NCBI GenBank assembly: GCA_945861715.1
Contig: CAMAVK010000002.1
Span: forward strand, 74,440 to 138,439
DNA from: Candidatus Woesearchaeota archaeon
GTDB lineage: Archaea; Nanobdellota; Nanobdellia; Woesearchaeales; GW2011-AR9
DNA length: 64,000 nucleotides
Reading direction: 5' to 3'
The notes under the pieces were generated by a model. The model was given only the letters and a program-made list of their open reading frames with translations, made no database searches and was not told where the DNA came from. Both the position numbers and the translations under genes were made by a program. Shown here one piece after another: positions 39,173 through 55,791 of this stretch; within the stretch, counting starts at the first letter, position 1, and every line of letters begins with the position of its first letter.

Positions 39173-41437
39173 GTGAGAAAAAATCATATCAAAAATAAGA
39201 GGCTTCATGGACAAAAGATATGGGCATTTAGTTTGCTCTCTGTTTTGATTGTTGTTGGTTTTGGTGCTCTATTTCACTATTCAAGTTCCTTTTCTTCTCT
39301 ATCACTTACCGGGCAGGTTACCGCTGATTCCCCATTTCTTTCTAATGCTCCTTTGGTACCAGTAACAGGCGTGGCTAGTGCTTATTCTCGCGGTTTTATT
39401 TCAAATACTGTTCCTTATGTATATTATGTTGGTTCACGAAGACAAGCGATATGTACTTGTCCAAAAAATGTGTGTCCTGCGTTTGCTTCGTGCGGAGTTG
39501 CTCTTGCGTCTGCTCCAGCTCTTATTGCGCAGATTACATCAAATGATGCAAAGTGTTTTGCGGTTACTCAAAAAGCAGGAGTCACATATGGCTCGGCTCC
39601 TACTATTACCATCGGTATTTGCCCTGTTGCGAGTAAAGCTGCAAGTCCACCTCCACCTTCTGCATGTTCATCTATAACGCATGGTACGCTTTGCTCTGGA
39701 GATGATATTGGTACTGTTCCTGCTACTGATTTTTCGTTGCCTGTTCTTAGTTGTACTAATCAACGAAAGTGTGAGTTTACTTGTGGTGCTGGTTATGTTC
39801 CGGTTGGAAAACAATGTATTGCTGTACCTGCAGCCGGCGTATGTGTTGATTCGGATTCGGGCGTTAATGGTGCGGTTCAAGGCTACGGTGTTACTTCAGG
39901 ATTGGTTAAAGTTGATTCGTGTTTTAGTGCGACTAGTATGCGTGAAGTAACTTGTTCTAATAACCAAATTAGTACCTCGAATAGTTTTACGTGTTCGGCT
40001 CAACAGGGTTGTGTTAACGGGATGTGTTCTGCTCGCACTAATTTGTATAATACTGTTCTTGCTGCTCCTGGCCCTTTTGCTCGTTCAGTGTGTGAAAAAC
40101 GATTGGCTGAGTTAGGTTTGTATCCGTCGGATTCCGTTCGAGCTGCGTCATGCCTGGGTACACATGTGGGCGTTCCACTCTTTATGGCAAATACTGGTCG
40201 AGTGTATACTGTTGATACTATTGGTCTTAGTCTTCCTGGTGGGTCCATTGCTGTTCCTACGGGTACACTCAAAGCTATTGGTAATTTTTGTCCAGTGTAT
40301 CGAAGTTCGCATGCTGCTGAATTTGTAACTGACACTGTTGGAGCTAATTCGTTTTATTACCCCACTTCTGCTGTGGCGCTTAAGGGTTGCCTTGGGTCTC
40401 TTGATCCAACTCTTCTTATTTCTTATGATGGTACATCATTAGTTCTTGCGACAAGTAACTCCATGTTTGATATTTTTTCCAATGTTGCCCTTTATCCAAC
40501 GTACGCAGTGCACGTTGCAGATGTTGATGTAGATAGGATTGCTGATGGTGTTGATAATTGTGTAAATATTGCTAATCCTACTCAAACTGATACCGACCGT
40601 GATGGTAAGGGAGATTTATGTGATAATTGTGTTTCCGTTTCGAATGTAGGCCAACTTGATTCTGATTCTGATCTAGTTGGAAATGCTTGTGACAATTGTG
40701 CTGATCTTGCTAATCGTGATCAGTTAGATTCTGATCGTGATAAAATTGGTGATGTGTGTGAAGTTGTTGCTCCTGCTCGCACGCTGCCTTCTTATTGGGA
40801 TTTGAATAATGATAATTTAGTAGATACGAGAGCTGATAGTGTTGGTCCTCCTGCTGTTACTAATTTAGATTCTGCCTGTGCTATGGCAGCGTTTAATTAC
40901 TTACCCCTTCGTCAATTTCAACCGGTCAAGGCTGCATGTGGTAATTCGCTTGTTGGATCTCGGAAAATTGATTTTGATTGTAATGGTCGCGTTAGTTTGA
41001 ATGAGATGCTCGAAACAATTGCAGTTATTACTCAAGGACAACCTATCTCTGGTGATCTTAATACTGATACTATCCCAGATTGTACTCTTTTGAATACTGA
41101 TTCTGACGGTATTGCGTTTGTTGATGACAATTGTCCTACAGTTTCAAATGTTGATCAAGCAGATGCTGATTCTGATGGAGTTGGGAACGTTTGCGATGCT
41201 GATTATGTATCTCCTGCTGCAGCTGCTCCTACTGGTGGGGCGGGGGCGGGTACTGGTGCTGGTCAGGCACTTGCTCGTCAGGTATTACCTTATGACTTAA
41301 ATGGAGATGGATGTGTAAATAGATCCGATGTTGATGTATTATTTGCAGAGTTTAGTTCTAATCGCAATTCCCGTGCTGTTGCACATAGGTTAACCTTAAT
41401 AGCTCGCCATATGGGTGAGGGATGTGTGGTGGGTTAA
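39173..41437 (+). CDS. Membrane-anchored surface protein: TSP3 repeats and dockerin-like end
   Basis: 754 residues, GTG start with AGGGGT upstream. One membrane helix (about 18-36) then SLTGQVTADS. A Cys-rich region follows, including a C-GDD-G module (LCSGDDIGTV..., KCEFTCGAGYVPVGKQC). Thrombospondin type 3 calcium repeats at about 450-530 and 640-675 (DSDSDLVGNACDNC, DADSDGVGNVCD). An EF-hand-like DFDCNGRVSLNEM near 602. The end, DLNGDGCVNRSDVDVLFAEF, is a dockerin-like calcium loop and helix. First gene of the 15-kb surface cluster; its stop is one base from the next start. Confidence 0.75.
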   Translation: MRKNHIKNKRLHGQKIWAFSLLSVLIVVGFGALFHYSSSFSSLSLTGQVTADSPFLSNAPLVPVTGVASAYSRGFISNTVPYVYYVGSRRQAICTCPKNVCPAFASCGVALASAPALIAQITSNDAKCFAVTQKAGVTYGSAPTITIGICPVASKAASPPPPSACSSITHGTLCSGDDIGTVPATDFSLPVLSCTNQRKCEFTCGAGYVPVGKQCIAVPAAGVCVDSDSGVNGAVQGYGVTSGLVKVDSCFSATSMREVTCSNNQISTSNSFTCSAQQGCVNGMCSARTNLYNTVLAAPGPFARSVCEKRLAELGLYPSDSVRAASCLGTHVGVPLFMANTGRVYTVDTIGLSLPGGSIAVPTGTLKAIGNFCPVYRSSHAAEFVTDTVGANSFYYPTSAVALKGCLGSLDPTLLISYDGTSLVLATSNSMFDIFSNVALYPTYAVHVADVDVDRIADGVDNCVNIANPTQTDTDRDGKGDLCDNCVSVSNVGQLDSDSDLVGNACDNCADLANRDQLDSDRDKIGDVCEVVAPARTLPSYWDLNNDNLVDTRADSVGPPAVTNLDSACAMAAFNYLPLRQFQPVKAACGNSLVGSRKIDFDCNGRVSLNEMLETIAVITQGQPISGDLNTDTIPDCTLLNTDSDGIAFVDDNCPTVSNVDQADADSDGVGNVCDADYVSPAAAAPTGGAGAGTGAGQALARQVLPYDLNGDGCVNRSDVDVLFAEFSSNRNSRAVAHRLTLIARHMGEGCVVG

Positions 41438-41438
41438 G

Positions 41439-43028
41439 ATGATATCTTCACGTGGGCTTTCAAAGGTTGTACTCATTGGTGTTATGGCTATTTTACTCGT
41501 GGGTGTTCTGGTATTTGTTATGTATAATAAAAGTGCTGTTGGGCAAGCTGTAGCTGTTAACACTGTTAACATTAATACTGTTCATGCGGGTGATGTAGGG
41601 CTTAGTGGTCCAGTTGTTGAGGGTTCAGAGAGCGCTTCAGTTGAAGTAGGACAAGAGTACTTTCTTCGTTTGTTTGCGAATCCCTCCGCTGATTTACATT
41701 CCTATGTTTTCACACTACGCTTTCCAGGGCAGTTTGCGTTTTCTGATACGCCTTATTCTTTCTCTACTCTAAATCCTGATTTTAGTATTCATCAGTCGGT
41801 TGTAAGTGGTGCTGATTATACTGAACTCATAGTAATGGTTAACTCGAATACTGGTGGGGTGATTGATGGCGGGCAGGCACTTTCACTTGGAAGAATATTT
41901 ATGAGGGCAGTTTCTGAAGGAAGTACTAATCCTACTTTTTCGTTTAGTGCACTTGATGAGTCTGGAGCTATCATTCTTGGTGAGGATGACCATGTTTTTG
42001 TTACACCTATCCGTGCAGTTCTTCCCGCTGCGCCTCCTGGTTCTGAGGTGGATCCAATTATTGTTGATACTTGTGATGATAATGGGGTGGCTGTTCCAGT
42101 TATAACTCAGCGGTGTGGTGCTCAGGGTGTGGTTGAGTATTGTGCGCAGAATCTTGGTGAGTCTGCACAATGGTCAGTTGATCCTGATATGCAATGTGGT
42201 GCGGGTACACATTGTGCTGGTGCTGGGATGTGTACTGCTGATGTTGCTGCTTCCCCCGCTGTTGCTGTTGTTGGGGGTGTCTGTGTAGTTGGAGACAGTG
42301 CGTCGGGTTTAGTTTGTGAGAATAGTGTATGGAAGATTGCGAGCGGATGGGATTGTGGATTGCATAGATCTGATTGTGTTTCTGGTACGGCTTGCTCTGC
42401 TGATGGGATTTGTCGAGTACCGGTAGTAGCTGTTGATATGTGTACTGTGGGTGATACTCGTTGTGCAGGTCTGAGTGCTCAAGAAGAATGTGTTCGCGGT
42501 GCTGATGGTATACTTGCGTGGGGCAATATGCAGGGGTGTACCACTCTTATTAGTGGTCAGTTGGGTCGGTCAGTTTCGCACGCGTTTTGTCCGTATGGAG
42601 TTCCGGGTGCATCGCAACACTGTATTGCAGATGAAAACCGTAATGGTATAGAGGATGGACCCAACGATCCTGTTGAAGTTGAAGCTGCTGCGCCTCCTGC
42701 TCCTGAGGTTCCTGCAGTTGAGGAAGTTCCTGCAGTAGTTTGTGTGCTTGGCGATTATAACTCGGATGGACGTGTGTCGATTCAAGACTTTCGTGGATTT
42801 CGGTCCCATGTGTTGTCGTGGAATGATTTGAGTTCGAACTTGGATTGTGGTTCTGCAGGTCAACAATCCTGTTCCGTTCGTGGTCAGTTCCAATGTGATT
42901 CCGGATTAGGGTTTGGTGCTGCCGTGTCGGCATGTAATCCTGGGTGTGTCGTTGGTGACTTTGATTCCAACGGTCGGGTTTCGATTCAGGATTTTAGAGG
43001 ATTTAGAAACGCGGTATTGCGTAGGTAG
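41439..43028 (+). CDS. Scaffoldin-like protein: N-terminal cohesin, C-terminal dockerin-like module
   Basis: 529 residues from the ATG at 41439. Membrane helix (about 12-32), then KSAVGQAVAVN. A cohesin-like beta domain spans about 50-185 (SVEVGQEYFLRLFANPSADL, YVFTLRFPGQFAF, LSLGRIFMRAVSEGST). Cys-rich segments follow. The last 95 residues are a dockerin-like module: GDYNSDGRVSIQDFRGFRSH, a 45-residue insert with cysteines, then GDFDSNGRVSIQDFRGFRNA. Having both partners in one chain would let it polymerise or bridge. Tightly linked to genes on both sides. Confidence 0.78.
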   Translation: MISSRGLSKVVLIGVMAILLVGVLVFVMYNKSAVGQAVAVNTVNINTVHAGDVGLSGPVVEGSESASVEVGQEYFLRLFANPSADLHSYVFTLRFPGQFAFSDTPYSFSTLNPDFSIHQSVVSGADYTELIVMVNSNTGGVIDGGQALSLGRIFMRAVSEGSTNPTFSFSALDESGAIILGEDDHVFVTPIRAVLPAAPPGSEVDPIIVDTCDDNGVAVPVITQRCGAQGVVEYCAQNLGESAQWSVDPDMQCGAGTHCAGAGMCTADVAASPAVAVVGGVCVVGDSASGLVCENSVWKIASGWDCGLHRSDCVSGTACSADGICRVPVVAVDMCTVGDTRCAGLSAQEECVRGADGILAWGNMQGCTTLISGQLGRSVSHAFCPYGVPGASQHCIADENRNGIEDGPNDPVEVEAAAPPAPEVPAVEEVPAVVCVLGDYNSDGRVSIQDFRGFRSHVLSWNDLSSNLDCGSAGQQSCSVRGQFQCDSGLGFGAAVSACNPGCVVGDFDSNGRVSIQDFRGFRNAVLRR

Positions 43029-43034
43029 GGAAGA

Positions 43035-43925
43035 ATGAATTCTACTACTTTTGTTTTTCTTATTTTTGTGCTTCTTTCAACGTTTGTTATTGCCCCACAA
43101 CAACCTGGTGCTGGAGAAGTTCCTGTCGTTACTTGTGTTGGAACTCCACTCCCTGGTACTACACCTTGTTGGTCTGGGACTGGTGTTGTAGCTCCTGGTA
43201 CTCCTATCAGGTATATCACTGCTGGTAATGCTGTTTGTGGCGATTCATTCGAATGTAAGTATGCTTGTCCTTTGGGCCAAGTGGCTGCTCTTGATGGCTC
43301 TGGTTGTCCTACACCGATTAGTTTTGATTTAACTCCGGGAGCTTCTCAGCTTTTCCGTTGGAATAGCCAGTTGGATTACAAACTGACTCTTACTCCGGAA
43401 GGTTTGAATTCGGATGTAGCCAATGTAGATATTTTGGAGCGGACTGCTGATGGTGCTTATCACTCGGTTCGCCGGCTGCGCTTGCTATGGGGTGAGCCTC
43501 TTACAGTGGATATTTCTGTTGCAAGGGTGGGTCCAGAGATTTATGTAACATATGATACTGACGCTGGTGGTGTTTATTTTTTCAAATTACAAAGTGTTGA
43601 CAATTCTCCATTAATTTTGCAGGCTAACGCGGGTGATTGTCTTCGAGGCGATTATAATGTTGATGGTCGTGTTTCAATTCAAGACTTTCGTGGATTTCGA
43701 TCGCATGTATTGTCGTGGTCAACTTTGAGTGAGGATGCAACTTGTGGTGGAGAAGGGCAACAAAGTTGTGCTGTGCGTGGTCAGTTCCAATGTGATTCCG
43801 GGTTAGGGTTTGGTGCTGCCGCGTTAGTTTGTGCTGCGAGTTGCAATATTGGTGACTTTGATTCTAATGGTCGCGTTTCTATTCGGGATTTTAGAGGATT
43901 TCGTAATGCGGTTCTGGGAAGATAA
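43035..43925 (+). CDS. Secreted dockerin-module protein
   Basis: 296 residues, starting 7 bp after the previous stop. Signal peptide (FVFLIFVLLSTFVIA). A short Cys-rich module (GDSFECKYACPLGQVAALDG) is followed by a beta domain of about 100 residues (LFRWNSQLDYKLTLTPEG) and the C-terminal dockerin-like module: GDYNVDGRVSIQDFRGFRSH and GDFDSNGRVSIRDFRGFRNA, with the same six-Cys insert as its neighbours. No membrane anchor, so it probably attaches via a cohesin. Confidence 0.78.
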   Translation: MNSTTFVFLIFVLLSTFVIAPQQPGAGEVPVVTCVGTPLPGTTPCWSGTGVVAPGTPIRYITAGNAVCGDSFECKYACPLGQVAALDGSGCPTPISFDLTPGASQLFRWNSQLDYKLTLTPEGLNSDVANVDILERTADGAYHSVRRLRLLWGEPLTVDISVARVGPEIYVTYDTDAGGVYFFKLQSVDNSPLILQANAGDCLRGDYNVDGRVSIQDFRGFRSHVLSWSTLSEDATCGGEGQQSCAVRGQFQCDSGLGFGAAALVCAASCNIGDFDSNGRVSIRDFRGFRNAVLGR

Positions 43926-44022
43926 CATTTTTTCCCCTATGCTTTAGATATCTGTCACATTTTCAGTTGAGAGTGTGTTTATCGCTTCAATGTTGTTTTG
44001 AATGTAGATTCGTCGAAGACTT

Positions 44023-44032
44023 TTTAAATTCC
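44023..44032 (+). promoter_or_regulatory. TATA box for the 881-residue surface protein
   Basis: CTTTTTAAAT lies 20-27 bp before the ATG at 44050 and no ribosome site precedes that ATG, fitting a leaderless start of a second transcript in the cluster. Confidence 0.5.
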
Positions 44033-44049
44033 AGTTTTATTGTTATTAT

Positions 44050-46695
44050 ATGCGCTCTGGATGGTTGATGTTTATACTAGTACTTGTTTTAGTGTTAGTC
44101 CCCATGGTTGAGGCCATTGAGTTTTCTGGATGTAATTCGTATTTTTCAAGTGCTACCTGCATATCTCACTCTGAGTGTTTTTGGAGGTATGGTAATTTAG
44201 GGGTAGGTAGTTGTCTTACGAAGGCTGGAACTCCAGCGTCAATTTCGGTTTCTTGTCCGAGTGTGGTGTCTGTTAATCAAACGTTTGAATGCACTTTATC
44301 AGGTGAGAATGTTAGGTTGAATAATGCGGAGATTGCTATTTTTGCTAATCCATTAGAAATACATGGGACTCCTTCAATCTCAAGCATGCAGTGGTATTCT
44401 GCGCAAAATCCTTTTTACACCCTACTCTCTGATAGGCTTTCGATAGTTTCTCTTGCGGATTATCAACCAGTACTTAATGATAGGATCGCTTCTCCCTATT
44501 TTGGTCCAATTATGAGATTTAAGATAGCATTGTCTCGTAATGTTAATAGGATTTCTGTTTCTGTTACGGGGTCTGACCTTCAACTTGATACTTCAAGTGG
44601 TCCTATTACGGTTCAACAAGGTTCTATTCCAATCACTTTTCCTTGCTATAATTCGTGGAATCGACCAGTATCTTTGGCGCAAGTTTCTACTCTTAATCCT
44701 ATTTATTGTTCTGTTGTTTTTACAAATGATTATTTTGGCAAGAATTTACGGATGTCATTTGGGATTTCTTCAGCTGGGTTGGCTCCGAGTTATATCAACC
44801 CCGATACATCGGCCGATTTTGTCCATTATTACACCACTGGTAAACCAGGGGTTGATATTAATGATAATTTGGTAATTACCAATTTAGATGTTCCTTTTGG
44901 TCAACCAATAACCATCACTTCTTCTGATAGAATACCAAAAGGGGCAGTTTTATCTATGGGGATGTTGTATACTCGTACAGGTTCTATTACTCCAACTCTT
45001 AGTACTTTATCTAGTTCTGGTCCTCCATTCCGTCTAACAGGGTCTCCAATTATGGTAAATTATTTTCTGGGTGGAGGGTGTCAACCGAGAGGGAGAGAGT
45101 TAGTACTGGAAGGAGCACATCCAGGTCAAGTTGTGTGTGGATTAATGAATGGTCAGCAGGGATGGATTTCAAAGATAGGTTCATACTGTGTAGATAATAA
45201 TAATTGTGGTGATACTGGACGTTGCCAACAAGGTGTGTGTAAAGTTGCGTCTGGTAGCTCTTGTGTACGAGATTTGGATTGTATGTCGGGTGATGCTTGT
45301 GAGTCAAATAGCTGTTCGTTTGTTAGACTAAATGCTCCTTGTACCGTTGCCGGTAAAACGGTTATTACCCCGATTTTCGGAACTTTGAAATGTGTATTGC
45401 GTGAGGGTAATCTGAGATGGCTCGGGGTACTTTCAACGGGGTGTGATGGGGATGCGTCTTGTGATACGGGTTTATTTTGTTCCAATTCTCGGTGTGCACC
45501 TGTTGCGGTTGGTGCTCCTTGCGTGACTCTTGGTGCTTTTCAGGGAAGAATTCCTTCATATGATGTAGCTACTTCGTTTATCTGTTCAACTGTTCCTGGC
45601 TCCTCTCCTTTACGTGAGGAAGTGCGGTTGAAAAGTAATAGTCCTTGCAGATTAGATTCTGAGTGTGTGTATGGTGATGTGTGCGATGGGGGACGGTGTC
45701 GCTTTGTATCCCCTGGGCGTGATTGTTTCATTGAAGGTCGTGAGCTTTTTCAAAGTGGTCGATTATATCGATGTGTTCTGGAAGAAGATGGTCTGAGTTG
45801 GAAGTCTGTTCCTGGTAATGTTTGTGCTGCTGATGGTGATTGTGATTCAGATGTGTCTCTTTTTTGTAGTGTAGGGAGGTGTGCAGTTATGGATTCGGGG
45901 TTACCTTGCTTTGCAGCTGGTACGCGTTTTGTAGAAGGTAGTTCCGACCCTTATCGTTGTATTTCTATTGATGGAACTAATGCGGCGGGATCTTATCGTT
46001 TATCAGTTACTAATGGTGGGGCGTGTGATGCACATTCGGAGTGTATGTCTGGTCAGTGTAATGGTGGGTTCTGTTCTCGGTTTGAAATTTTTCATACTTG
46101 TTATCAATTGCATTCAACATGGACTCAAGATAGTCGCACTCTTGTTTGCGAGCAGACTTCACAGTTAATCCCAGCGTTTATTTGGAAGGTCCCCGAGGGA
46201 GGAAGGTGTCAGGGTGATGATGGGCTATCGTATCCCAATCGCTGTGCAGCTGAAAATTCGCGTTGTGTGGATGGTCGATGTCTTGCTGAAGGTGAGTTAT
46301 GCTCTGTTCTTAACTCTCAAATTAATGGTGATGTAAATTCTCTTGTGTGTAAAATAGTTGGGGATCATTTAGAATGGGTCTTAGAGGGTGTGGTGGTACA
46401 GGGTGAATGTCTCTTGGGTGATTATACTGGTGATGGTCGTGTGTCGATTCAAGACTTTCGTGGATTTCGGTCGCATGTGTTGTCATGGAGTGATCTTAGT
46501 TCTAATGTTGACTGCGGAGCTGGGGGTCAGCAATCGTGTGCGGTACGTGGTCAGTTCCAATGTGATTCTGGTTTAGGGTTTGGCGGGGCTGTGTCACAAT
46601 GTGGCGCTCATTGTAATATTGGGGATTTTGATTCTAATGGTCGGGTTTCAATTCAGGACTTTCGTGGGTTTAGAAACGCGGTTCTTGTTCGATAA
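44050..46695 (+). CDS. Large Cys-rich surface protein with dockerin-like end
   Basis: 881 residues. Signal peptide (LMFILVLVLVLVPMVEA). Residues 60-330 hold two cohesin-like beta stretches (SVNQTFECTLSGENV..., VLSMGMLYTRTG). Residues 330-780 hold at least six Cys-rich repeats of the form DSECVYGDVCDGGRCRFV, resembling EGF-like or colipase-like knots. The last 95 residues are the shared dockerin-like module (GDYTGDGRVSIQDFRGFRSH ... GDFDSNGRVSIQDFRGFRNA). It could present Cys-rich binding knots on a cohesin scaffold. Confidence 0.75.
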   Translation: MRSGWLMFILVLVLVLVPMVEAIEFSGCNSYFSSATCISHSECFWRYGNLGVGSCLTKAGTPASISVSCPSVVSVNQTFECTLSGENVRLNNAEIAIFANPLEIHGTPSISSMQWYSAQNPFYTLLSDRLSIVSLADYQPVLNDRIASPYFGPIMRFKIALSRNVNRISVSVTGSDLQLDTSSGPITVQQGSIPITFPCYNSWNRPVSLAQVSTLNPIYCSVVFTNDYFGKNLRMSFGISSAGLAPSYINPDTSADFVHYYTTGKPGVDINDNLVITNLDVPFGQPITITSSDRIPKGAVLSMGMLYTRTGSITPTLSTLSSSGPPFRLTGSPIMVNYFLGGGCQPRGRELVLEGAHPGQVVCGLMNGQQGWISKIGSYCVDNNNCGDTGRCQQGVCKVASGSSCVRDLDCMSGDACESNSCSFVRLNAPCTVAGKTVITPIFGTLKCVLREGNLRWLGVLSTGCDGDASCDTGLFCSNSRCAPVAVGAPCVTLGAFQGRIPSYDVATSFICSTVPGSSPLREEVRLKSNSPCRLDSECVYGDVCDGGRCRFVSPGRDCFIEGRELFQSGRLYRCVLEEDGLSWKSVPGNVCAADGDCDSDVSLFCSVGRCAVMDSGLPCFAAGTRFVEGSSDPYRCISIDGTNAAGSYRLSVTNGGACDAHSECMSGQCNGGFCSRFEIFHTCYQLHSTWTQDSRTLVCEQTSQLIPAFIWKVPEGGRCQGDDGLSYPNRCAAENSRCVDGRCLAEGELCSVLNSQINGDVNSLVCKIVGDHLEWVLEGVVVQGECLLGDYTGDGRVSIQDFRGFRSHVLSWSDLSSNVDCGAGGQQSCAVRGQFQCDSGLGFGGAVSQCGAHCNIGDFDSNGRVSIQDFRGFRNAVLVR

Positions 46696-46775
46696 TACTA
46701 TTTTTGATATTACGAAAGGTTTATATTTACTAATTGAATACATTAATCAAGTTTTACTACTACGAGGGATGATGG

Positions 46776-47558
46776 ATGGCTAAGTTTTACTCACTGTTAA
46801 TACTATTTTTACTAATGCTTGGTTCTGTGGTTTTGGCAGATGCAACGTTTACACTTAGTCCGAATCCAGCGACGGCAAGTGTAGGTGATACGGTGACTGT
46901 TACACTGGCCTTTGATGCTGGTGGCGCAGTTAATCCTTTTAGTACTGCATATGTTTTAACTTCGCAGCAGCTTACTTTTGATGATCCGGCTGGGCCGCAA
47001 TGCGGGTTAGAAGATAACTCCGACTCTCATATTTTAAATTGTGATTATATGGAGGCCTTCGCTCCAAATTCTTTTGTGATTACTGCTCGGGTTGTTTCAG
47101 TACCTATAACTATCAATCTCGAGCAAGCCTATGTAGATCTTTATAATCCTAATAATGATGATGAGTCTATTTCGGTGAATGTGGCGCCTGTTCCTCCGTT
47201 AATTATTCCTGCTGCTAATGCTGCTGCTGGTGGTGGTGTACCTGCTGCTTGTCAAGAATCTTGGGCATGCTCCGACTTCTCAAATTGTGCAAATGGGCAA
47301 GAAACACGAACTTGCGAAGATACTAATCATTGTGGGACTCAAGTATCTCAGCCTGTACCTTCGCGTGCCTGTGTGGATGGTCCATCTTGTCATGAGGGAA
47401 CTCATAATGAAGGTGGTAGTTGTGTTGCTGATGTTGCTCCTCTCTCTCAAGAAGATTTGCTTGCACAATTAGAAACTGTTCTTGGTGGATCTGGGTTGAA
47501 TAGATTACAGCAAATCTCACATATCGCCCGATTATTAATGCAGGGTGGTGTACAATGA
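46776..47558 (+). CDS. Secreted cohesin-like plus TSP1-like protein
   Basis: 260 residues. Signal peptide (LLILFLLMLGSVVLA), then a cohesin-like or related beta domain (TLSPNPATASVGDTVTVTLA, about 20-140), then a thrombospondin type 1-like segment, SWACSDFSNCANGQETRTC, ending CGTQVSQPVPSRAC. A short helical tail follows (LNRLQQISHIARLLMQ), like the tails of the 754- and 1179-residue proteins. Its stop overlaps the next start (ATGA), so the genes are translationally coupled. Confidence 0.72.
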   Translation: MAKFYSLLILFLLMLGSVVLADATFTLSPNPATASVGDTVTVTLAFDAGGAVNPFSTAYVLTSQQLTFDDPAGPQCGLEDNSDSHILNCDYMEAFAPNSFVITARVVSVPITINLEQAYVDLYNPNNDDESISVNVAPVPPLIIPAANAAAGGGVPAACQESWACSDFSNCANGQETRTCEDTNHCGTQVSQPVPSRACVDGPSCHEGTHNEGGSCVADVAPLSQEDLLAQLETVLGGSGLNRLQQISHIARLLMQGGVQ

Positions 47559-50500
47559 AGTTTCGTGCATTTTCTTTTTGTGTACTCCTTTTAGCTCTTA
47601 GTCTGGGTTCTTTGGCTGCGACTACTGTATTTTTTCAGCCTTCCACACTATCTCTAGCTCAAGGTGAAGTAAAAGAAGTAACGGTTATAATAAATTCTGA
47701 TCTACCACTCAACAGCATACAAATTGCTGGTACATATGATCCAGCTAAGGTGTCTGTTGTTGCAACAAAATTGCCTTTGGTGGGTGCAAATGGTGTGGCA
47801 TGGCCCGTTGCTACTATAGGGGCTCCCGTATTTGCTCCGCCTAGCAATCGCTTTGCTTATAATGCTGTTCTTAATCCAGATGTTCCTGCGCAATACCTTG
47901 CTCCTGGTCAGACGCGTCTTTTTACCTTGCGGTTTACTGGTATTGCTGCTGGTGTTAGTACAGTTTCTATGGCTTCAGCATTTTATAGGACGGGGGCAGT
48001 TAACCCTATTGCTATTGCTGTTTTACCCACTGTTTCTGTAACCGGTCCAGTTGCTCGTTTTAATCCTTTTCCTGGAACTCCATTTGATAATGCTCCTGTC
48101 ACTCCTCGTGCAGCAGGGACAGTAGATCAGGAAAATTGTGAGTTTCGATCATCTGCGGGTATAATCTCTGCTGGTTTCAACAGCGATAGGGATAATATTA
48201 TGCGTGATTCTCAAGATCCTGATTGTTTGAATCAAGCATGCGATGTTGCTGCTCCAACTAAAAAATGGACGTGGTCTTATTATTTAGGTGATACGGCTCG
48301 TACTGCTCCTCCTTCGGCTTTAGGTACTGGTTGTTGTGCTCCAAATCAATGTGCTCTTGCAGGTCAATGTATGAACCCAGGTTCTATTGATGAATCTAGC
48401 GGTCATTCAATGGTATGTTTGGGTCATGATAATGCGGTTTTGAGTTCGGCGACTGTTGTTGCGGTAGCGGGTGCGGTTGCTCCAATTGATTCTAATCCGT
48501 CGGTTAATTCATGGCTAGTATGTACTCCTGGTAGTCGATCTGTTACGGTAGGTGGTATCGTGTATACCTGTGCAAATGGTCATTGGACTTCACCTGCGTG
48601 TAGAGCTCCAGATCCTGCTGCCTTTGCTCATTCTAGTTTCTGTGCTGGTGATGATGTAGGCGTGGTTGGTGCGCCTCTTGCGCCTGCTCTTGTTGGGTAT
48701 GATATTTCAATGAATAGAGGTATGTGTACTGCTGAGCGAAAGTGTGAGTATGCCTGTCAACAAGGATATCGGTTAGGAACAAATGCGAATGGTGCGCCTG
48801 CGTGTGTTTTAGATGTTCCATGTACTCCTACGCAAAATCCAGGTACAAATCCTAAACAATGTAAGGTAGGTAGTCCTACTGTTCTTCAGTATTGTGCAAA
48901 TGTAAATAATTTAGTGCAGTGGGTTGATTCACCTTGTAGTGCAGGACAGACATGTCATGCTGCTGATGCGCAACATACACTTGCGTATTGTACTTTAGAT
49001 GTTGATGCTGATGGTGTTGATGATTCAATTGATAATTGTCGTATGATTGCTAATCCCAATCAAGCTAACGCGCGTTTAGGTACACCTCAAAATAATGGGT
49101 ATGGTGATGCTTGTCAAGCAAATGCTGCTTGTACTATGGTTAATGGTGCTGCTTCTGGTTTTGTTTGGAGTTATGATTCTAGAGAGAATCCTGGTATAAA
49201 TCCTTTAATTGGATGTTGTGCTGCTGGATCTTGTGCAGATCGAAGAGGACTGTGTTTTACTTTTAATCCTGGAAACCCACAAACAATCAATGGATTTTGT
49301 AAGCCAGGTGGCAATTGGGAAATCTGTGACATTAATACTCATGGACTTGTGAGTTCAACTAATCCTGACTATAGATGTTTAAGTAAGCAAATTGCTGTTC
49401 CTGGACAAATTGTCCCTGCGGTTCCTGACCCTGTTTGGGTAAGATGTATGCCTAGTAATTTCATCTCTTTTGCGGGATCAAAGTTGGCGACTCCTGGTAA
49501 TGCAGCTTTTGTTGGTGATACTGAAGCTGGTGGGGTTGTTTGTGATGCTAATGGAGATTGGCACCCGTCACCATGTACAGGTATTATTCCTAACTCTAAG
49601 GTATGTACTGGTGATGATGTAGGTGTTGTTGATCAAACTCCTAAACTACTTGTTGCATCGTGTGATGCTCTTCCTCAAGCAAAGTGTCAATATGTGTGCT
49701 TGCGAGGATATATGAAGTCTGGTGGTAGTTGTGTTCCTGACTTAGATAATGATGCTATTGCTGACCCGGTTGATAACTGTCCTTCGGTTTATAACCCTGA
49801 TCAAAATGCTGCAAGTTGTGTTGAAGGCAATGCTTGTATTTCGAAAATTGATGTTGATAAATATCTAAATGTTCCTTCTGTTGCTCTTCCTATTCCTCCG
49901 AATTCGGCTGCTGTTTGGACTTATACCAATTCCCGAGATAATGTTGCTTCCAAAGTAGTTGCTTGTTGTAATGGTTACTTCAATCCTAATCCAGTATCCA
50001 ATGATTGTGCACTTCCTAATGGATATTGTATGAGAGAAAATGAAGTTTCTCGAGAGAAGTTATGCGGCGATAACCATATTATGGAAGTTTGTGATGCGCA
50101 GCATGATGGTGTAATCTCAAAATCTAATCCTCTTGTGCGCTGTAAATTTACGAAGCAAGTTGATGCTTGTCGAGCAGGTGAACGTCTAGCAGGAGATATG
50201 TGTATAAATGATATTACCAGGACAGCTCATGCTGCTGATTTCTGGGTTCCACAATGGCAAGTTTGTAATGAAGCAAATGTAGCGGATTATAATGATGGAT
50301 CATCATGTCAAGCGAGTGGTGCATGGCAGAGAGAAGAGTGTACTCTTGCGAAAGATGGCCAGGTTGGTTTAATGGATCATACCCTTCGGTGTAAGCATGA
50401 CTGGATGGGTAGTCCTGCATGGATTCAATGTAATACTGCAAATCTACAAATTTTCAATACTTTGAAGGATCAATACAATATTAATATTCGTAACCTTGTT

Positions 50501-51094
50501 CCTTCTCAAGGTTTTAATGATGGAAGTAGTTGTTCAGCAGCAGGTGATTGGATTTTGGAGCCATGTGGCCCCTCTAATCATGCTGATGTTCATACATTGA
50601 ACCGCAAATTGCGTTGCCGAGCAGGTTTCGCACCTGAGGGACAAGTTGTGGCGCACCCAGTTTGGGTCCAATGTAATACTGCGAATTTAGTATTATTCAA
50701 TGATAATCCTTCATGTGATGCTAGTGGATTTTGGCAAAGTGCAGAAATTGAGGCTAATCATGATTGTAATTTGGATCGTACTTGTACACCTGGTGATCCA
50801 TGTTCACTAGATTCTGATTGTGCTGATGGTGCGTGTTCTAATGGAATTTGTGAACCAATTCAGGATGCAGATAATGATGGTGTTCCTGATGTTTTTGATC
50901 AATGTCCGGATACTTCTCCAGATGAAATTAATATTGTAAATGGGGTTGGCTGTGTTGCGGGGGATAGCGAGGGTACAGTTGATGATTTTATAGAACTTGT
51001 TCGCGCGATACTCAATGATGATTCAAATGATCATAAAATACAATCCATTGCAGAATTATTTAGGACTCATTTGGATGTCCTTGCAGTTAATTAA
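47555..51094 (+). CDS. Giant cohesin-domain surface protein with Cys-rich repeats
   Basis: 1179 residues. Signal peptide (FCVLLLALSLGSLA), then a clear cohesin domain at about 20-170 (FFQPSTLSLAQGEVKEVTVI, IQIAGTYDPAKVSVV, LAPGQTRLFTLRFTG). Three roughly 250-residue Cys-rich repeats follow, each with a W-x-Y stretch, paired cysteines (GCCAPNQC, GCCAAGSC, ACCNGYF) and two with the C-GDDVGVV module. TSP3 repeats lie at about 490, 735 and 1110. The end (TVDDFIELVRAILND ... IAELFRTHLD) resembles the dockerin-like tail of the first cluster gene. No enzyme domain is seen. Confidence 0.76.
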   Translation: MKFRAFSFCVLLLALSLGSLAATTVFFQPSTLSLAQGEVKEVTVIINSDLPLNSIQIAGTYDPAKVSVVATKLPLVGANGVAWPVATIGAPVFAPPSNRFAYNAVLNPDVPAQYLAPGQTRLFTLRFTGIAAGVSTVSMASAFYRTGAVNPIAIAVLPTVSVTGPVARFNPFPGTPFDNAPVTPRAAGTVDQENCEFRSSAGIISAGFNSDRDNIMRDSQDPDCLNQACDVAAPTKKWTWSYYLGDTARTAPPSALGTGCCAPNQCALAGQCMNPGSIDESSGHSMVCLGHDNAVLSSATVVAVAGAVAPIDSNPSVNSWLVCTPGSRSVTVGGIVYTCANGHWTSPACRAPDPAAFAHSSFCAGDDVGVVGAPLAPALVGYDISMNRGMCTAERKCEYACQQGYRLGTNANGAPACVLDVPCTPTQNPGTNPKQCKVGSPTVLQYCANVNNLVQWVDSPCSAGQTCHAADAQHTLAYCTLDVDADGVDDSIDNCRMIANPNQANARLGTPQNNGYGDACQANAACTMVNGAASGFVWSYDSRENPGINPLIGCCAAGSCADRRGLCFTFNPGNPQTINGFCKPGGNWEICDINTHGLVSSTNPDYRCLSKQIAVPGQIVPAVPDPVWVRCMPSNFISFAGSKLATPGNAAFVGDTEAGGVVCDANGDWHPSPCTGIIPNSKVCTGDDVGVVDQTPKLLVASCDALPQAKCQYVCLRGYMKSGGSCVPDLDNDAIADPVDNCPSVYNPDQNAASCVEGNACISKIDVDKYLNVPSVALPIPPNSAAVWTYTNSRDNVASKVVACCNGYFNPNPVSNDCALPNGYCMRENEVSREKLCGDNHIMEVCDAQHDGVISKSNPLVRCKFTKQVDACRAGERLAGDMCINDITRTAHAADFWVPQWQVCNEANVADYNDGSSCQASGAWQREECTLAKDGQVGLMDHTLRCKHDWMGSPAWIQCNTANLQIFNTLKDQYNINIRNLVPSQGFNDGSSCSAAGDWILEPCGPSNHADVHTLNRKLRCRAGFAPEGQVVAHPVWVQCNTANLVLFNDNPSCDASGFWQSAEIEANHDCNLDRTCTPGDPCSLDSDCADGACSNGICEPIQDADNDGVPDVFDQCPDTSPDEINIVNGVGCVAGDSEGTVDDFIELVRAILNDDSNDHKIQSIAELFRTHLDVLAVN

Positions 51095-51107
51095 CTAGGT
51101 GATACTT

Positions 51108-53123
51108 ATGGCTTCAATGCAACAAAAACAATCTGTGCAATCAAAACCGGTTGCGAGACCAGCTGCTAAGCAAGTTGGTAGTATAAACAATAACGTGGGT
51201 GCGTCTGCTAGCGCTACACCTGCTGTTCCTTCAGCGAGCAGTCCATTAAAGTTTGTGGTTATTGCGGTTGTTGCTATTGTTGCAATAGCGTTGTTGCTCT
51301 TCTTTGTGAATAAAGGTACAGGTCATGCGATTAACTTTGGTGATGATGCTGGGATTGCGGCAAATATGGGTGGTGTATTTCTAGCTGATGGCAGTACCAT
51401 TCCGGTTGATAATGGGGCAGCTGATCTCTTATTACCGTTGAAAATTAATTTTGAGTCTCGTTCCGTTGCAGTGCAAGTTAATTATCACATTGAAGCATCT
51501 GAAGGTGCAATTTTTGAGTGTGATTTTGCATTACGTTCTGATTTGCAGGAGAGTGGACTTGTGGTGTTGAATGATCAATTCTGCTCTTTAGGTCAAGATA
51601 GTCATGTTGAAATTGCATTTTTATGTGCTGATGCAGAGTGCAGTAATGCCTTTTCTGGTGTTGAAGAAATTGGTCAGTTGCGGTTAACACCTGATGCCGA
51701 TAATACTGAACCTATTTCAGTTACTTTTGATAGTATTTCGTATGTTGATTTTGAAGATGTTGAAGATAGGATTGTTGATGTTGCTGTTCAAAATGCTGCG
51801 CTTAATTATGCTGGTGAGCCACCTGCTTGTCCTCCGACTGATTGTGCGTCTGAAGGTCAGAGTGCGTGTCAAGGTAATTCGGCATGGGGTACTTGTTCAG
51901 TGAATGTAAACACAGGTTGTTTAGAAGTTTCAAATGTTCCTGATGAGAATAGGTGTGGTCTAACTCGACATTGTGAGGTCGGAGCTTGCGTTGATAATCC
52001 ACCGTTTGTTTGTGTTGCTGCAGAGGGATGTATTGTTGAAGCTCAGTGTACTTTAGGTGGATTTTACTGGTATGCTGATGTGAATGGTGTTGAGACATGT
52101 CATGCTGAAGATGCTCCTCAATGTGATAATACCATTGATGCTGATAGTGATGGTGTTGGAGATGCTTGTGACAACTGTCCTGCTCTTGGTAATGGTAATC
52201 AGATTGATCTTGATGCTGACAGTATCGGTGACTCTTGTGATAATGATAAAGATGGCGATACTATTCCTAACAGTGATGAAATTGCAGGATGTGATATTGA
52301 TAATAGTCCAGAATGTGGTTCAGATAATACGGATTTTGATAGTGATGGGGTCTTAAATGATGTTGATAACTGTCCAAATCTAACGAATGCAAATCAAGCG
52401 GACTCGGATGCTGATAGAGTCGGCGATGCATGTGACGGTGAAGCGGGACCAAATAGTGATTTTGATGTTGATGGTGTTATTGATACTGGTGATAATTGTC
52501 CTCGTGTTGCAAATGCGGATCAAGCGGATCTGGATGCTGATGGTGTAGGAGATAACTGTGACAATTGCCGCAGTAATTCGAATGCTGATCAGGTGAATGC
52601 TGATAGTGATGCACTCGGTGATGCTTGTGATGTTTGTTCTCAAGATGACCAGAATGATCGCGATGCCGACGGTATTTGTGGTAATGTAGATAATTGTCCT
52701 GCAACTTCTAATCCTCTTCAAGAAGATGTAGATGCCGATGGTATTGGGGAAGCTTGTAATGGTATTCCTCGAGTAGTTGATAATGAGGTTGTCCAATCAA
52801 TGGACGGTCTGAAGGTTAAGGTTGTAGAGGGTGGAAAACAAGGAAGTGTGTTTACTACTTTAGTTATTGCTTTGGAACCTATTGACACCCCTTTTACGGT
52901 TTATACTACCTTACTTGATGCAGATGGAGTTACAATCGTGTTTGAGAGTCGAACTATTCAATCATTGGAACCAGGAAATTCATTTAGGGTACATACTGAT
53001 GGGGGTGTCCTTGAAGTTGTTAAAAAAGAAGTCATTGTTAATGATAATCTTGACCCTGCAACATCTCTTGTCCATCTTAACGGTAAGTTTTCAGTGAGTT
53101 ATGGTAATGTGGGGGTAAATTAG
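51108..53123 (+). CDS. Membrane-anchored protein with cohesin-like domain and TSP3 array
   Basis: 671 residues from the ATG at 51108, behind AGGTGAT; a GTG at 51099 overlaps that site and is rejected. A 45-residue Gln/Lys/Ala-rich cytosolic start, membrane helix (about 47-70) and the motif GTGHAINFG. A cohesin-like beta domain covers about 100-235 (RSVAVQVNYHIEASEG ... IGQLRLTPD). A long run of TSP3 calcium repeats spans about 340-560 (DADSDGVGDACDNCPA type). A last beta domain follows. It is a good candidate for the cell anchor of the complex. Confidence 0.75.
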   Translation: MASMQQKQSVQSKPVARPAAKQVGSINNNVGASASATPAVPSASSPLKFVVIAVVAIVAIALLLFFVNKGTGHAINFGDDAGIAANMGGVFLADGSTIPVDNGAADLLLPLKINFESRSVAVQVNYHIEASEGAIFECDFALRSDLQESGLVVLNDQFCSLGQDSHVEIAFLCADAECSNAFSGVEEIGQLRLTPDADNTEPISVTFDSISYVDFEDVEDRIVDVAVQNAALNYAGEPPACPPTDCASEGQSACQGNSAWGTCSVNVNTGCLEVSNVPDENRCGLTRHCEVGACVDNPPFVCVAAEGCIVEAQCTLGGFYWYADVNGVETCHAEDAPQCDNTIDADSDGVGDACDNCPALGNGNQIDLDADSIGDSCDNDKDGDTIPNSDEIAGCDIDNSPECGSDNTDFDSDGVLNDVDNCPNLTNANQADSDADRVGDACDGEAGPNSDFDVDGVIDTGDNCPRVANADQADLDADGVGDNCDNCRSNSNADQVNADSDALGDACDVCSQDDQNDRDADGICGNVDNCPATSNPLQEDVDADGIGEACNGIPRVVDNEVVQSMDGLKVKVVEGGKQGSVFTTLVIALEPIDTPFTVYTTLLDADGVTIVFESRTIQSLEPGNSFRVHTDGGVLEVVKKEVIVNDNLDPATSLVHLNGKFSVSYGNVGVN

Positions 53124-53124
53124 G

Positions 53125-54258
53125 ATGAGACGACTCATTCTTGCGATTTTCATTTTTGCTTTTTTTTCTTTTAGCGTTGCCGCAGTTGATGTTTCGCTTT
53201 CCGCAACTGAATTAGCGCGAGGACAGGTTTTGGTTTCTACTGTTACAAGTTGTGCTAATATTGCTACGTTGCAACTTAAGAATCCAGACGGACAATTAGT
53301 ATATGTTGATCAAGGAAATGCTGATTGGGAGTCTCGGTATAACACTAATTCCAATGGAGCACGGGGTAAATATTCTTTGAAAGTGCTTTGTCAGGATACA
53401 ACTTCTACAGAGAAATTCTTTTGTGTAGAAGCTCCTGGTTGTACTGATGTTGCTATTAATAATGTACCACCTCCTCCTCCAGCTGATGATGGTAATGCTA
53501 ATGCTGGGTCACCAAGTGGGAATAGTGGTGGAGGAGGACGACGTTGTAACCCAAAATGGCAATGTGATAATTATTGGACGCAATGTGATGTTACTTTACA
53601 ACAAAGTCGAAATTGTTTTGATACCACCAAATGTGCACCGCAGAAATTAGAGAATCGAACTTGTGCGCCATGTCAAGAGTCATGGGCTTGTTCAGCTTGG
53701 AGTCCATGTGAGGGTGGCATGGAGGGTCGAACTTGTTTAGATGATAAGGATTGTGGCACCGCAACGTACAAACCAGTTGAGGAGCGGCCATGTGGCGCTG
53801 ATATCGGTGGATATGAACCTGATCGATATACTTCGCAAGTTCCTCCACCGTCCGCTGCTGCACCAAGCCGACTGCAATATCCTGCAGTGCAAAAAGTGGT
53901 TGCACCTGTAGCTAGTGTATCGTTTTGGGATGAGTGGGGCTTTTTGATCCTTGCTTTGCTTGCGTTGTTGTTGCTTGTGGGTATTATTTTATATCTACTT
54001 CATATGAAGAACAATAAACATGCAGCATATAATTCGGATGAGTTGAAGATTTGGATGCTTAAAGAAAAAGAAGCTGGTTCGTCTGAAGGTGATATTCGTC
54101 AGATTTTAATGGAACAAACAGGTTGGACCAAAGAAGATGTGGATTTGGCGTTTGAAGAGTTGGCCAAATCTCAAACTCCTGCTGGGGTTGTACCTCCGTC
54201 GGTTGCATCTGTTGCTCCTGTGGAGCCGGTTAAGTCTGTTGAGAAAGGGAAGAAGTAG
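53125..54258 (+). CDS. Membrane protein with two TSP1-like domains and cytosolic helical tail
   Basis: 377 residues, starting 1 bp after the previous stop. Signal peptide (LILAIFIFAFFSFSVAA), beta domain (20-120), Pro/Gly linker, then two TSP1-like units (KWQCDNYWTQCDVTLQQSRNC and SWACSAWSPCEGGMEGRTC). A membrane helix lies near 273-293. The cytosolic end holds a three-helix module, EGDIRQILMEQTGWTKEDVD, like that of the protein at 28073. It can link the outer complex to the cell interior. The 3' end is duplicated at 55461. Confidence 0.75.
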   Translation: MRRLILAIFIFAFFSFSVAAVDVSLSATELARGQVLVSTVTSCANIATLQLKNPDGQLVYVDQGNADWESRYNTNSNGARGKYSLKVLCQDTTSTEKFFCVEAPGCTDVAINNVPPPPPADDGNANAGSPSGNSGGGGRRCNPKWQCDNYWTQCDVTLQQSRNCFDTTKCAPQKLENRTCAPCQESWACSAWSPCEGGMEGRTCLDDKDCGTATYKPVEERPCGADIGGYEPDRYTSQVPPPSAAAPSRLQYPAVQKVVAPVASVSFWDEWGFLILALLALLLLVGIILYLLHMKNNKHAAYNSDELKIWMLKEKEAGSSEGDIRQILMEQTGWTKEDVDLAFEELAKSQTPAGVVPPSVASVAPVEPVKSVEKGKK

Positions 54259-54271
54259 TTTTTTTGTTTTT

Positions 54272-54808
54272 TTACAATAATTTTTTCATTTCAAATACAA
54301 ATTCTTTTGCTCGTTCTATGGAAGTTATTGCTTTAGAACGTTTTGCTTGATTATCCATATTATATTGGAATCTTGATCGTTTTTCTCGTTCTTGATCTAA
54401 TGATGAGATCAATTCATCTGCACGTTGTGAGGTTAACTCTAATGCGTCATTTTTTGCGGATTCATATTCTTCTAACAAACTTGCTTTTAATTTGTTTCGT
54501 GCAAGTACTATAATTGCATCCGCTGTGATTTTGTGGCTAATTTTATCACCCACTTTATAACCTAATTTTAGTAAAATTGCGTTAGATATGTAGTACATGG
54601 AGTAATAGGAGGTCACAATTATCCATAGTGATGGTTGATAATTTACATTTTCTAAAGTAAGGATTTTTTGAGCGGTTTGTAATGAGAGTTCTGCATTTTC
54701 AATATACATTTCTATTGCAGTTTGATTTGTTTGCTTCTTTAGCATACCCTCTAGTAAATAGGTACGTACGTTTGATTCCGCTTCTTTAATTCGTTTTTCG
54801 TCAAGCAT
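54272..54808 (-). CDS. HEPN-domain protein (toxin-like)
   Basis: 178 residues, all helical. HEPN-type pattern: SYYSMYYISNAILLKLGYKV, KISHKIT, and a late helix EREKRSRFQYNMD. The RX4-6H ribonuclease motif of active HEPN toxins is not apparent because no His follows that Arg, so it may be a variant or inactive toxin. It overlaps the upstream MNT gene by 8 bp, the order of a type VII MntA/HepT-like toxin-antitoxin pair. Confidence 0.72.
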   Translation of the reverse strand: MLDEKRIKEAESNVRTYLLEGMLKKQTNQTAIEMYIENAELSLQTAQKILTLENVNYQPSLWIIVTSYYSMYYISNAILLKLGYKVGDKISHKITADAIIVLARNKLKASLLEEYESAKNDALELTSQRADELISSLDQEREKRSRFQYNMDNQAKRSKAITSIERAKEFVFEMKKLL

Positions 54809-55376
54809 TTTTCAAGTGGTAATATGTCTCAATTCCATATAAAATAATATTATTGTTGAGTACTTCTTGTATGATATTGGATTTTTTTGAGTCTTTCATT
54901 CGAATAAATTCTTCTTCAGTGACTATCACTGGGTGTATTTTGAGGGGTATTATTGATATGATACTTGTAATTTTGCTTTCAAATAGGGGGTCATTTGAAA
55001 TGAATAAAATATCAATATCTGAGGTTCTCGTTTGAGTTCCTTTGACATATGAACCGAATAACACCATTACAAATAAGCTCGTTTTAATTTTAGTGGTTAT
55101 CTCTTTGTACATTTGGGTGATATTTTTGATTTTAAGAATGTTTTCTCTTTGTTCATATTCTGCTTCAATTATTTCGATGGTAATATTCTTCTCATTCATG
55201 CTACAAAGAGTGCTTTTCCCTATTTTTTTGGTGTATAAAATGTTTTTTTCGATGAGTTTTTGTGTTGCGATATAGGTTATTTTATAGTCTGATCTAATTC
55301 TTTTACTTAATTCTCGGATTGTTCTTGGTTCCTTGTTTTGAATAAATTCCTTAAGTATTTTTATCTCTGTTTTCAT
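54801..55376 (-). CDS. MNT-family nucleotidyltransferase with HTH (antitoxin-like)
   Basis: 191 residues. N-terminal winged helix (TIRELSKRIRSDYKITYIAT) about 18-60, then a minimal nucleotidyltransferase core FGSYVKGTQTRTSDIDILF, a perfect GSx10DxD motif. MNT antitoxins AMPylate or bind HEPN toxins. The fused DNA-binding domain suggests autoregulation, and a palindrome sits just before the start. Partner HEPN gene follows with overlap. Confidence 0.82.
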   Translation of the reverse strand: MKTEIKILKEFIQNKEPRTIRELSKRIRSDYKITYIATQKLIEKNILYTKKIGKSTLCSMNEKNITIEIIEAEYEQRENILKIKNITQMYKEITTKIKTSLFVMVLFGSYVKGTQTRTSDIDILFISNDPLFESKITSIISIIPLKIHPVIVTEEEFIRMKDSKKSNIIQEVLNNNIILYGIETYYHLKNA

Positions 55377-55723: not shown

Positions 55724-55787
55724 TTATATATCTATAATATAGAACATGGTTCTAGAATAATGATTATTAGTAAAAATTAGAGGTGAT
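55724..55787 (+). promoter_or_regulatory. Promoter, inverted repeats and ribosome site before the PGF-pre-PGF gene
   Basis: TATA box TTTATATAT at about 55724-55732. AGAACATGGTTCT (55741-55753, a 5-bp inverted repeat) and AATAATGATTATT (55757-55769) lie around the expected start site. AGAGGTGAT (55779-55787) is a perfect ribosome site before the GTG at 55792. Confidence 0.5.
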
Positions 55788-55791
55788 TAAT

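What the first reader, a model, noticed from the sequence alone, without database searches (positions are those of the whole stretch)
42739..46692. Three near-identical dockerin-like ends with a six-cysteine insert
The C-terminal 95 residues of the genes ending at 43028, 43925 and 46695 each consist of GDY-x-DGRVSIQDFRGFRSH, a 45-residue insert, and GDFDSNGRVSI(Q/R)DFRGFRNA. Each has six cysteines in the same places, so three disulfides are possible. Typical dockerins have a short linker between their two loops. Nucleotide identity is high, suggesting recent duplication or gene conversion. This would be a new disulfide-locked dockerin variant and implies that the three proteins compete for the same partner.
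Basis: partly seen in the sequence, partly recalled or inferred. Interest (0 to 1): 0.72.

Follow-up and report, generated by a model that had tools for sequence, protein, structure and literature searches.

The report
Docking plug with cysteine-rich insert
Three neighbouring surface proteins of an uncultured archaeon end in the same small module, which looks like a calcium-dependent docking plug (dockerin) with a cysteine-rich piece built into its middle; it probably plugs proteins into a surface complex encoded by the same gene cluster, a lineage-specific variant of a known kind.

Summary
In detail: three adjacent genes end in a 95-residue module with two calcium-loop/helix repeats, six cysteines at identical places, and 68 residues from loop to loop; two-loop dockerins in related operons have 30-39. 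Fed nine related sequences, AlphaFold gives a low-confidence dockerin-like arrangement: 28 of 31 Foldseek matches are dockerins. The 'insert' is the cysteine tail of a repeating unit (half-dockerin + CGxxxQxxC...C...C) that recurs singly, in tandem or with a degenerate loop in 6 of 48 examined genomes of the same family and was not recognised beyond it. The copies are not recent: DNA identity 74-76%, dS 0.8-1.3, no conversion tract. The genes lie in an operon kept in relatives, where Pfam cohesins sit beside the same membrane-anchor gene; the window's gene at that position is related to them. Best reading: a dockerin-type plug stabilised by a disulfide-rich insert, docking three proteins onto a cohesin-like partner. 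Partner, disulfides and calcium binding are untested; as a whole it misses Pfam's dockerin cut-off. New variant of a known kind.

The parts
39173..41437 (+). Operon gene 1: N-terminal hydrophobic segment, thrombospondin-3 repeats, one C-terminal half-dockerin-like loop (DLNGDGCVNRSDVDVLFAEF) without the cysteine tail
41415..43028 (+). Operon gene 2 (537 aa): N-terminal membrane segment, beta-rich region resembling a cohesin by eye, module copy 1 at the C-terminus
   Evidence: the beta-region was not recognised by any profile on its own
42741..43025 (+). Module copy 1 (95 aa): loop 1 + helix (residues 1-26), cysteine-rich stretch (27-69), loop 2 + helix (70-95)
43035..43925 (+). Operon gene 3 (296 aa): signal-peptide-like N-terminus, module copy 2 at the C-terminus
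43638..43922 (+). Module copy 2
44050..46695 (+). Operon gene 4 (881 aa, 56 Cys): signal-peptide-like N-terminus, module copy 3 at the C-terminus
46408..46692 (+). Module copy 3
46776..47558 (+). Operon gene 5: secreted, beta-rich N-terminal region, CxESWxC motif domain, helical C-terminus
   Evidence: (second match in G000)
47555..51094 (+). Operon gene 6: secreted, cohesin-like N-terminal region by eye (weak match to a gene of G015, E 3.6e-4), thrombospondin-3 repeats, degenerate loop/helix C-terminus
51099..53123 (+). Operon gene 7: N-terminal membrane segment + cohesin-like domain (about residues 75-245) + thrombospondin-3 repeats; best candidate docking partner
53125..54258 (+). Operon gene 8 (anchor gene): Cys/Trp-rich repeats, C-terminal membrane helix and a cytosolic tail; conserved marker of the operon in the family

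Best explanation
The three modules are dockerin-type plugs. Two nearly symmetric calcium-binding loop-helix repeats pack against each other as in type I dockerins, and a disulfide-rich segment of about 45 residues (CG-x3/4-Q-x2-C-x7-C-x12-C-x3-C in the window) loops out between helix 1 and loop 2. Shown: the sequence pattern, strong conservation of both repeats and the cysteines (dN/dS about 0.12-0.22), recurrence of the half-dockerin + cysteine-tail unit in five relatives, and a low-confidence predicted dockerin arrangement. Inferred: the plugs hold the C-termini of three secreted or membrane-anchored proteins in a cohesin-like domain of the same operon (first candidate the membrane-anchored gene 51099-53123), building a surface complex; because the helices are nearly identical in all three, they would use the same partner. 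The cysteine segment most likely stabilises the fold outside the cell or adds a contact surface.
For: The unit profile's best solved-structure matches are cellulosomal dockerins (2vn5 E 4.5e-6, 2mte, 2vn6, 1daq), ahead of other EF-hands, over the loop + helix only. The 9-row AlphaFold model has symmetric helices 14-25 and 82-93; 28 of 31 Foldseek matches are dockerins, and the best alignment is 2vn5_B, Z 6.8, 1.6 A over 55 of its 56 residues, skipping the insert. An engineered 16-residue insert between dockerin helices 1 and 2 left cohesin-dockerin rupture behaviour unchanged (PMC4728124, section 10 read). Operon: Pfam cohesins lie next to the anchor gene in G011 and G039; the window's gene at that position matches 5 genes of relatives (E 3.7e-10 to 8.8e-5), which a profile of cohesin-hit relatives also finds (E 2.5e-15 to 1e-8); profile-profile comparison with five over-cut-off cohesins sharing no rows gives 98.2%. 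Related operons carry two-loop dockerins; PF00404 passes its cut-off in 3 of 17 relatives' genomes searched. Purifying selection.
Against: No window protein passes the Dockerin_1 cut-off (16.2, 17.7, 10.8 bits against 22.9) and no Cohesin match exists in the genome. The A12 profile of the 51099 family finds no solved structure at E <= 1. The model is poor (pLDDT 51.6, pTM 0.44; residues 29-69 under 50), no Foldseek E-value is below 0.067, and Z under 8 may mean only a common arrangement; with the three window rows alone the model was meaningless (pLDDT 34). Nothing shows that the cysteines are oxidised, and several relatives carry only one half-dockerin, sometimes with a degenerate loop, so the unit may not work as a classical two-repeat dockerin everywhere.
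Confidence: 0.6

Rival explanations
1. The module is a calcium- and disulfide-stabilised C-terminal cap or sorting tag, not a docking plug: the half-dockerin + cysteine-tail unit folds by itself and marks or protects the protein end, with no cohesin partner.
For: In G021, G038, G019, G002 and G036 the unit occurs singly, in tandem or with a degenerate loop, so two-fold dockerin symmetry is not required; no cohesin is recognised by Pfam in this genome.
Against: The two helices are nearly identical within each protein and between proteins, as expected if they face a partner; related operons and genomes encode recognisable cohesins and dockerins.
Confidence: 0.25
2. The cysteines serve intermolecular cross-links: the modules join neighbouring surface proteins covalently, and the loops only keep the ends in register.
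For: All eight operon proteins are cysteine-rich, 3.8-6.4%.
Against: The number of cysteines per window module is even and the cysteine pattern is kept among relatives down to about 22-30% identity, which fits internal pairs better.
Confidence: 0.08
3. Recent duplication or gene conversion explains the likeness, without special selection.
For: Three adjacent genes; longest identical DNA runs 23-35 bases.
Against: dS 0.83-1.27 with dN 0.14-0.18; no run of identical synonymous codons beyond chance (p 0.81, 0.09, 0.44).
Confidence: 0.07

Closest known systems
Type I dockerin (Pfam PF00404; e.g. 2vn5, 2mte, 1daq)
   Same: Two DxNxDGxV-type loops, each followed by a helix; internal near-symmetry; C-terminal position in secreted proteins; predicted packing of the two repeats
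   Different: 68 residues between loop starts instead of 30-39; cysteine-rich segment inserted; below the Pfam cut-off
Non-cellulosomal archaeal cohesin/dockerin systems (ANME archaea, PMC9012536, passages read; Archaeoglobus fulgidus as cited there)
   Same: Archaeal surface proteins with dockerins and cohesins and no link to cellulose
   Different: DPANN host, cysteine-tailed unit, compact operon with an anchor gene; no such module is described in the passages seen
NagJ cohesin-like module (2jh2, 2o4e, 2ozn)
   Same: Best solved-structure matches of the profile of operon beta-domains A11 (E 3.6e-5)
   Different: A11 includes relatives that pass Pfam Cohesin; without those rows (A12) nothing is found at E <= 1

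Membership tests
Dockerin (type I, PF00404) | Two calcium-loop + helix (F-hand) repeats with internal symmetry | tested here: met
   16-19 of 26 residues identical between repeats; loop ligand pattern by inspection (Thr at loop position 3 in copy 3)
Dockerin (type I, PF00404) | Short linker between repeats | tested here: not met
   68 residues loop to loop, against 30-39 in two-loop dockerins of related loci
Dockerin (type I, PF00404) | Score over Pfam's cut-off | tested here: not met
   16.2, 17.7 and 10.8 bits against 22.9; no match in the whole genome at E <= 0.01
Dockerin (type I, PF00404) | Dockerin fold | tested here: inconclusive
   Low-confidence model whose matches are nearly all dockerins, best Z 6.8
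Dockerin (type I, PF00404) | Binds a cohesin; calcium-dependent | not testable with these tools
   Needs protein
Cohesin (PF00963), for gene 51099-53123 | Score over Pfam's cut-off | tested here: not met
   No match in the own genome at E <= 10
Cohesin (PF00963), for gene 51099-53123 | Homology to recognised cohesins | tested here: met
   hhalign of A12 against five over-cut-off cohesins, 98.2%, P 4.3e-14; but no solved structure at E <= 1 and no match to the nine-row profile

The most novel reading that the evidence does not exclude
One family of Woesearchaeota-type DPANN archaea has evolved its own docking unit, half-dockerin plus disulfide knot, which is shuffled among the proteins of an operon-encoded cohesin/dockerin surface complex that these small archaea use to build their envelope or hold on to hosts; calcium and redox state together would control its assembly.
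Probability: 0.3. Interest if true: 0.7.

Novelty: new variant of a known kind. Interest (0 to 1): 0.5.

Why it matters
How DPANN archaea build their surface and attach to hosts is largely open. A short operon in which cohesin-like domains, dockerin-like plugs and a membrane anchor sit together gives pairs that can be expressed and tested for binding at once, and the insert offers a possible natural example of a dockerin stabilised by disulfides, of use where cohesin-dockerin pairs serve as molecular glue.

Tried and rejected
Viral scan: one hit (L010), a chance match inside a MutS-like gene. Genome-contig scan with the module: 46 pattern matches, no relative; it used two exact 8-residue peptides, so it only excludes close relatives. 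megablast of 41415-46692 against phages: none. tblastn of the module: plasmids none, phages one chance match at E 0.4; tblastn of the anchor protein against plasmids: none. First AlphaFold run, 3 rows, pLDDT 34, discarded. Cysteine tail against solved structures and Pfam: chance level only. VIA-align lists only Foldseek's own candidates, so the absence of other folds there means nothing. Tree of the anchor gene (43 rows): unresolved around G000, G021 and G038, with G019 elsewhere, so one origin of the unit cannot be shown. Promoter/terminator scan at the level of shuffles. Dropped rows: hits of A4 outside the family, most of which cover only the loop, G320 in a 34-residue frame, G040 (a plain loop without the tail), and L108 when building the cohesin profile. 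Literature: no paper on Woesearchaeota dockerins or cohesins was found, nor one on disulfide-bearing archaeal dockerins in the listings; the library holds open-licence papers only, and the 2009 review of non-cellulosomal modules was not held. Papers read: passages of PMC9012536 and PMC10066038, passages and section 10 of PMC4728124; the rest were seen as search listings.
Full report
WHAT IS THERE. The window belongs to a 1.3-Mb genome in 8 contigs (98% complete). Contigs with the same operon in relatives belong to records titled Candidatus Woesearchaeota (L057, L058) and 'archaeon' (L056), so this is a Woesearchaeota-type DPANN archaeon; the placement is inferred. Eight same-strand genes at 39173-54258 are almost contiguous (gaps -23, 6, 124, 80, -4, 4, 1 bases) and all have N-terminal hydrophobic segments and 3.8-6.4% cysteine. 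Three of them end in the module, at 42741-43025, 43638-43922 and 46408-46692.

THE MODULE. Residues 1-26: a cysteine, then loop and helix C-x2-GDYxxDGRVSIQDFRGFRSHVLS. Residues 27-69: the segment with C36, C44, C52, C65 and C69. Residues 70-95: the second loop and helix, GDFDSNGRVSI(Q/R)DFRGFRNAVL. The repeats are 16-19 of 26 identical within a protein. The six cysteines coincide in all three copies. Only these three copies exist in the genome.

AGE. Copies are 74-76% identical in DNA and 77-83% in protein, dS 0.83-1.27, dN 0.14-0.18. A permutation test on codons that encode the same residue finds no run of identical codons longer than chance (p 0.81, 0.09, 0.44). The copies are old and under purifying selection, and upstream sequence is unrelated: the module appears to move between genes as a unit.

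RELATIVES. A 3-row profile found weak hits in two relatives (3 of 96 genomes including the own); one of them, G040, has a plain loop without the tail. In G021 an 853-residue protein ends in two tandem units of loop + helix + CGGxxQxTCxxxxxxxCD...C, and two neighbours end in diverged units. A profile of window and G021 units, with no rows from other genomes, then found G038 (E 1.7e-18 and 2.8e-5), G019 (2.0e-4) and G002 (5.2e-4) among 19 of 352 genomes with a match at E <= 0.01, the others mostly covering the loop alone. The tail in G036 was seen in a gene brought in by the cohesin search; the tail profile that scores it includes that row. With the 13-row profile A10, 6 of the 48 family genomes I can account for have units: G000 3, G002 3, G019 1, G021 4, G036 2, G038 2; these profile hits include the profile's own rows, and the 49th member, G048, is not visible. 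Among 336 genomes of the order only one further match came up, in a 34-residue frame. A 371-genome sample of the phylum gave G000, G038 and G019 only. The tail therefore follows a half-dockerin-like helix wherever seen; its first three cysteines (CG, C, C) are near-invariant, while the cysteines that precede the loops occur before both loops or neither among the few two-loop cases (window and G019 both; G021 tandem neither; by inspection). Whether the fourth tail cysteine of relatives corresponds to C65 or C69 is ambiguous in the alignments.

WHAT IT RESEMBLES. Against all solved-structure sequences a 7-unit profile finds dockerins first (2vn5 E 4.5e-6), only over loop and helix. As whole proteins the three genes stay under Pfam's Dockerin_1 cut-off. 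Two-loop dockerins in the related operon loci have 30-39 residues between loop starts; the window has 68 and G021 64 (one further pair in that output, at 94, includes a false first match). AlphaFold with three rows failed (pLDDT 34); with nine rows (pLDDT 51.6, pTM 0.44) it gives two symmetric helices and an unresolved segment 29-69. Of 31 Foldseek matches at E <= 10, ranks 1-28 are dockerins, best E 0.067; VIA-align's best is 2vn5_B, Z 6.8, 1.6 A over 55 residues. This supports the geometry but is no proof. An artificial 16-residue insert between helices 1 and 2 of a clostridial dockerin left its rupture behaviour with cohesin unchanged (PMC4728124, section 10), so the site tolerates insertion.

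THE OPERON. The last gene (53125-54258) has a match to its C-terminal profile in 206 of 352 genomes of the order at E <= 1e-6, many of them over a short shared Cys/Trp motif only; full-length matches are concentrated in the own family. I fetched 40 regions around such genes. In G011 and G039 the gene directly before the anchor gene passes Pfam's Cohesin cut-off (positions). Over the cut-off: 7 of 96 genomes. The window's gene at that position, 51099-53123, is not recognised by Pfam, and the nine-row cohesin profile does not list it, but it matches five genes of relatives which that profile finds, and its family profile aligns with five over-cut-off cohesins at 98.2%. The same family profile finds no solved structure at E <= 1. 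Of 17 operon beta-domains scanned, one matched Pfam Cohesin, at E 0.047. At E <= 1e-3 the cohesin profile finds genes in 22 of the 46 sequences scanned (45 loci and the window, one locus present twice), four of which supplied rows. G002 shows the plan plainly: membrane-anchored beta-domain proteins ending in the cysteine tail alternate with secreted ones, two of which end in two-loop dockerins. In G022 and G026 two neighbouring genes also share near-identical dockerin-like ends, while in G001, G002 and G015 they differ.

MECHANISM. Most likely the three ends are plugs for one cohesin-like socket of the operon. The helix residues that in known dockerins touch cohesin (positions 10, 11, 17, 18 of each repeat; recalled, from no call) are the same in all three copies, apart from Q/R at position 11 of repeat 2. 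The cysteine segment would stabilise the plug or add contacts. Binding, calcium and disulfides are inferred.

VERDICT. The module works like a dockerin on present evidence, but it is not filed under PF00404, since linker length and Pfam score were tested and not met. New variant of a known kind, specific as far as seen to one archaeal family.

Noticed in passing
window 39173-54258; L011, L051, L059-L098: A conserved operon of cysteine-rich surface proteins ending in a membrane-anchor gene occurs widely in this archaeal family, often with cohesin-like and dockerin-like ends
   Followed up: partly
L089 1-10539 (G002): Membrane-anchored beta-domain proteins with the cysteine tail alternate with secreted proteins, two of them ending in ordinary two-loop dockerins
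   Followed up: partly
L055 and L059 (G022, G026): Neighbouring genes share near-identical dockerin-like ends specific to that genome, as in the window but without the cysteine tail
   Followed up: partly
window 51099-53123, 47555-51094, 39173-41437: Thrombospondin type 3 repeats (calcium-binding) in three operon proteins
   Followed up: no
window 54272-55376 (-): Nucleotidyltransferase-domain gene next to a small unassigned gene; resembles a minimal nucleotidyltransferase/HEPN pair (recalled, not tested)
   Followed up: no
window 55783-57549: Another secreted or membrane protein with Ig-like repeats (weak Big_13) just beyond the operon
   Followed up: no
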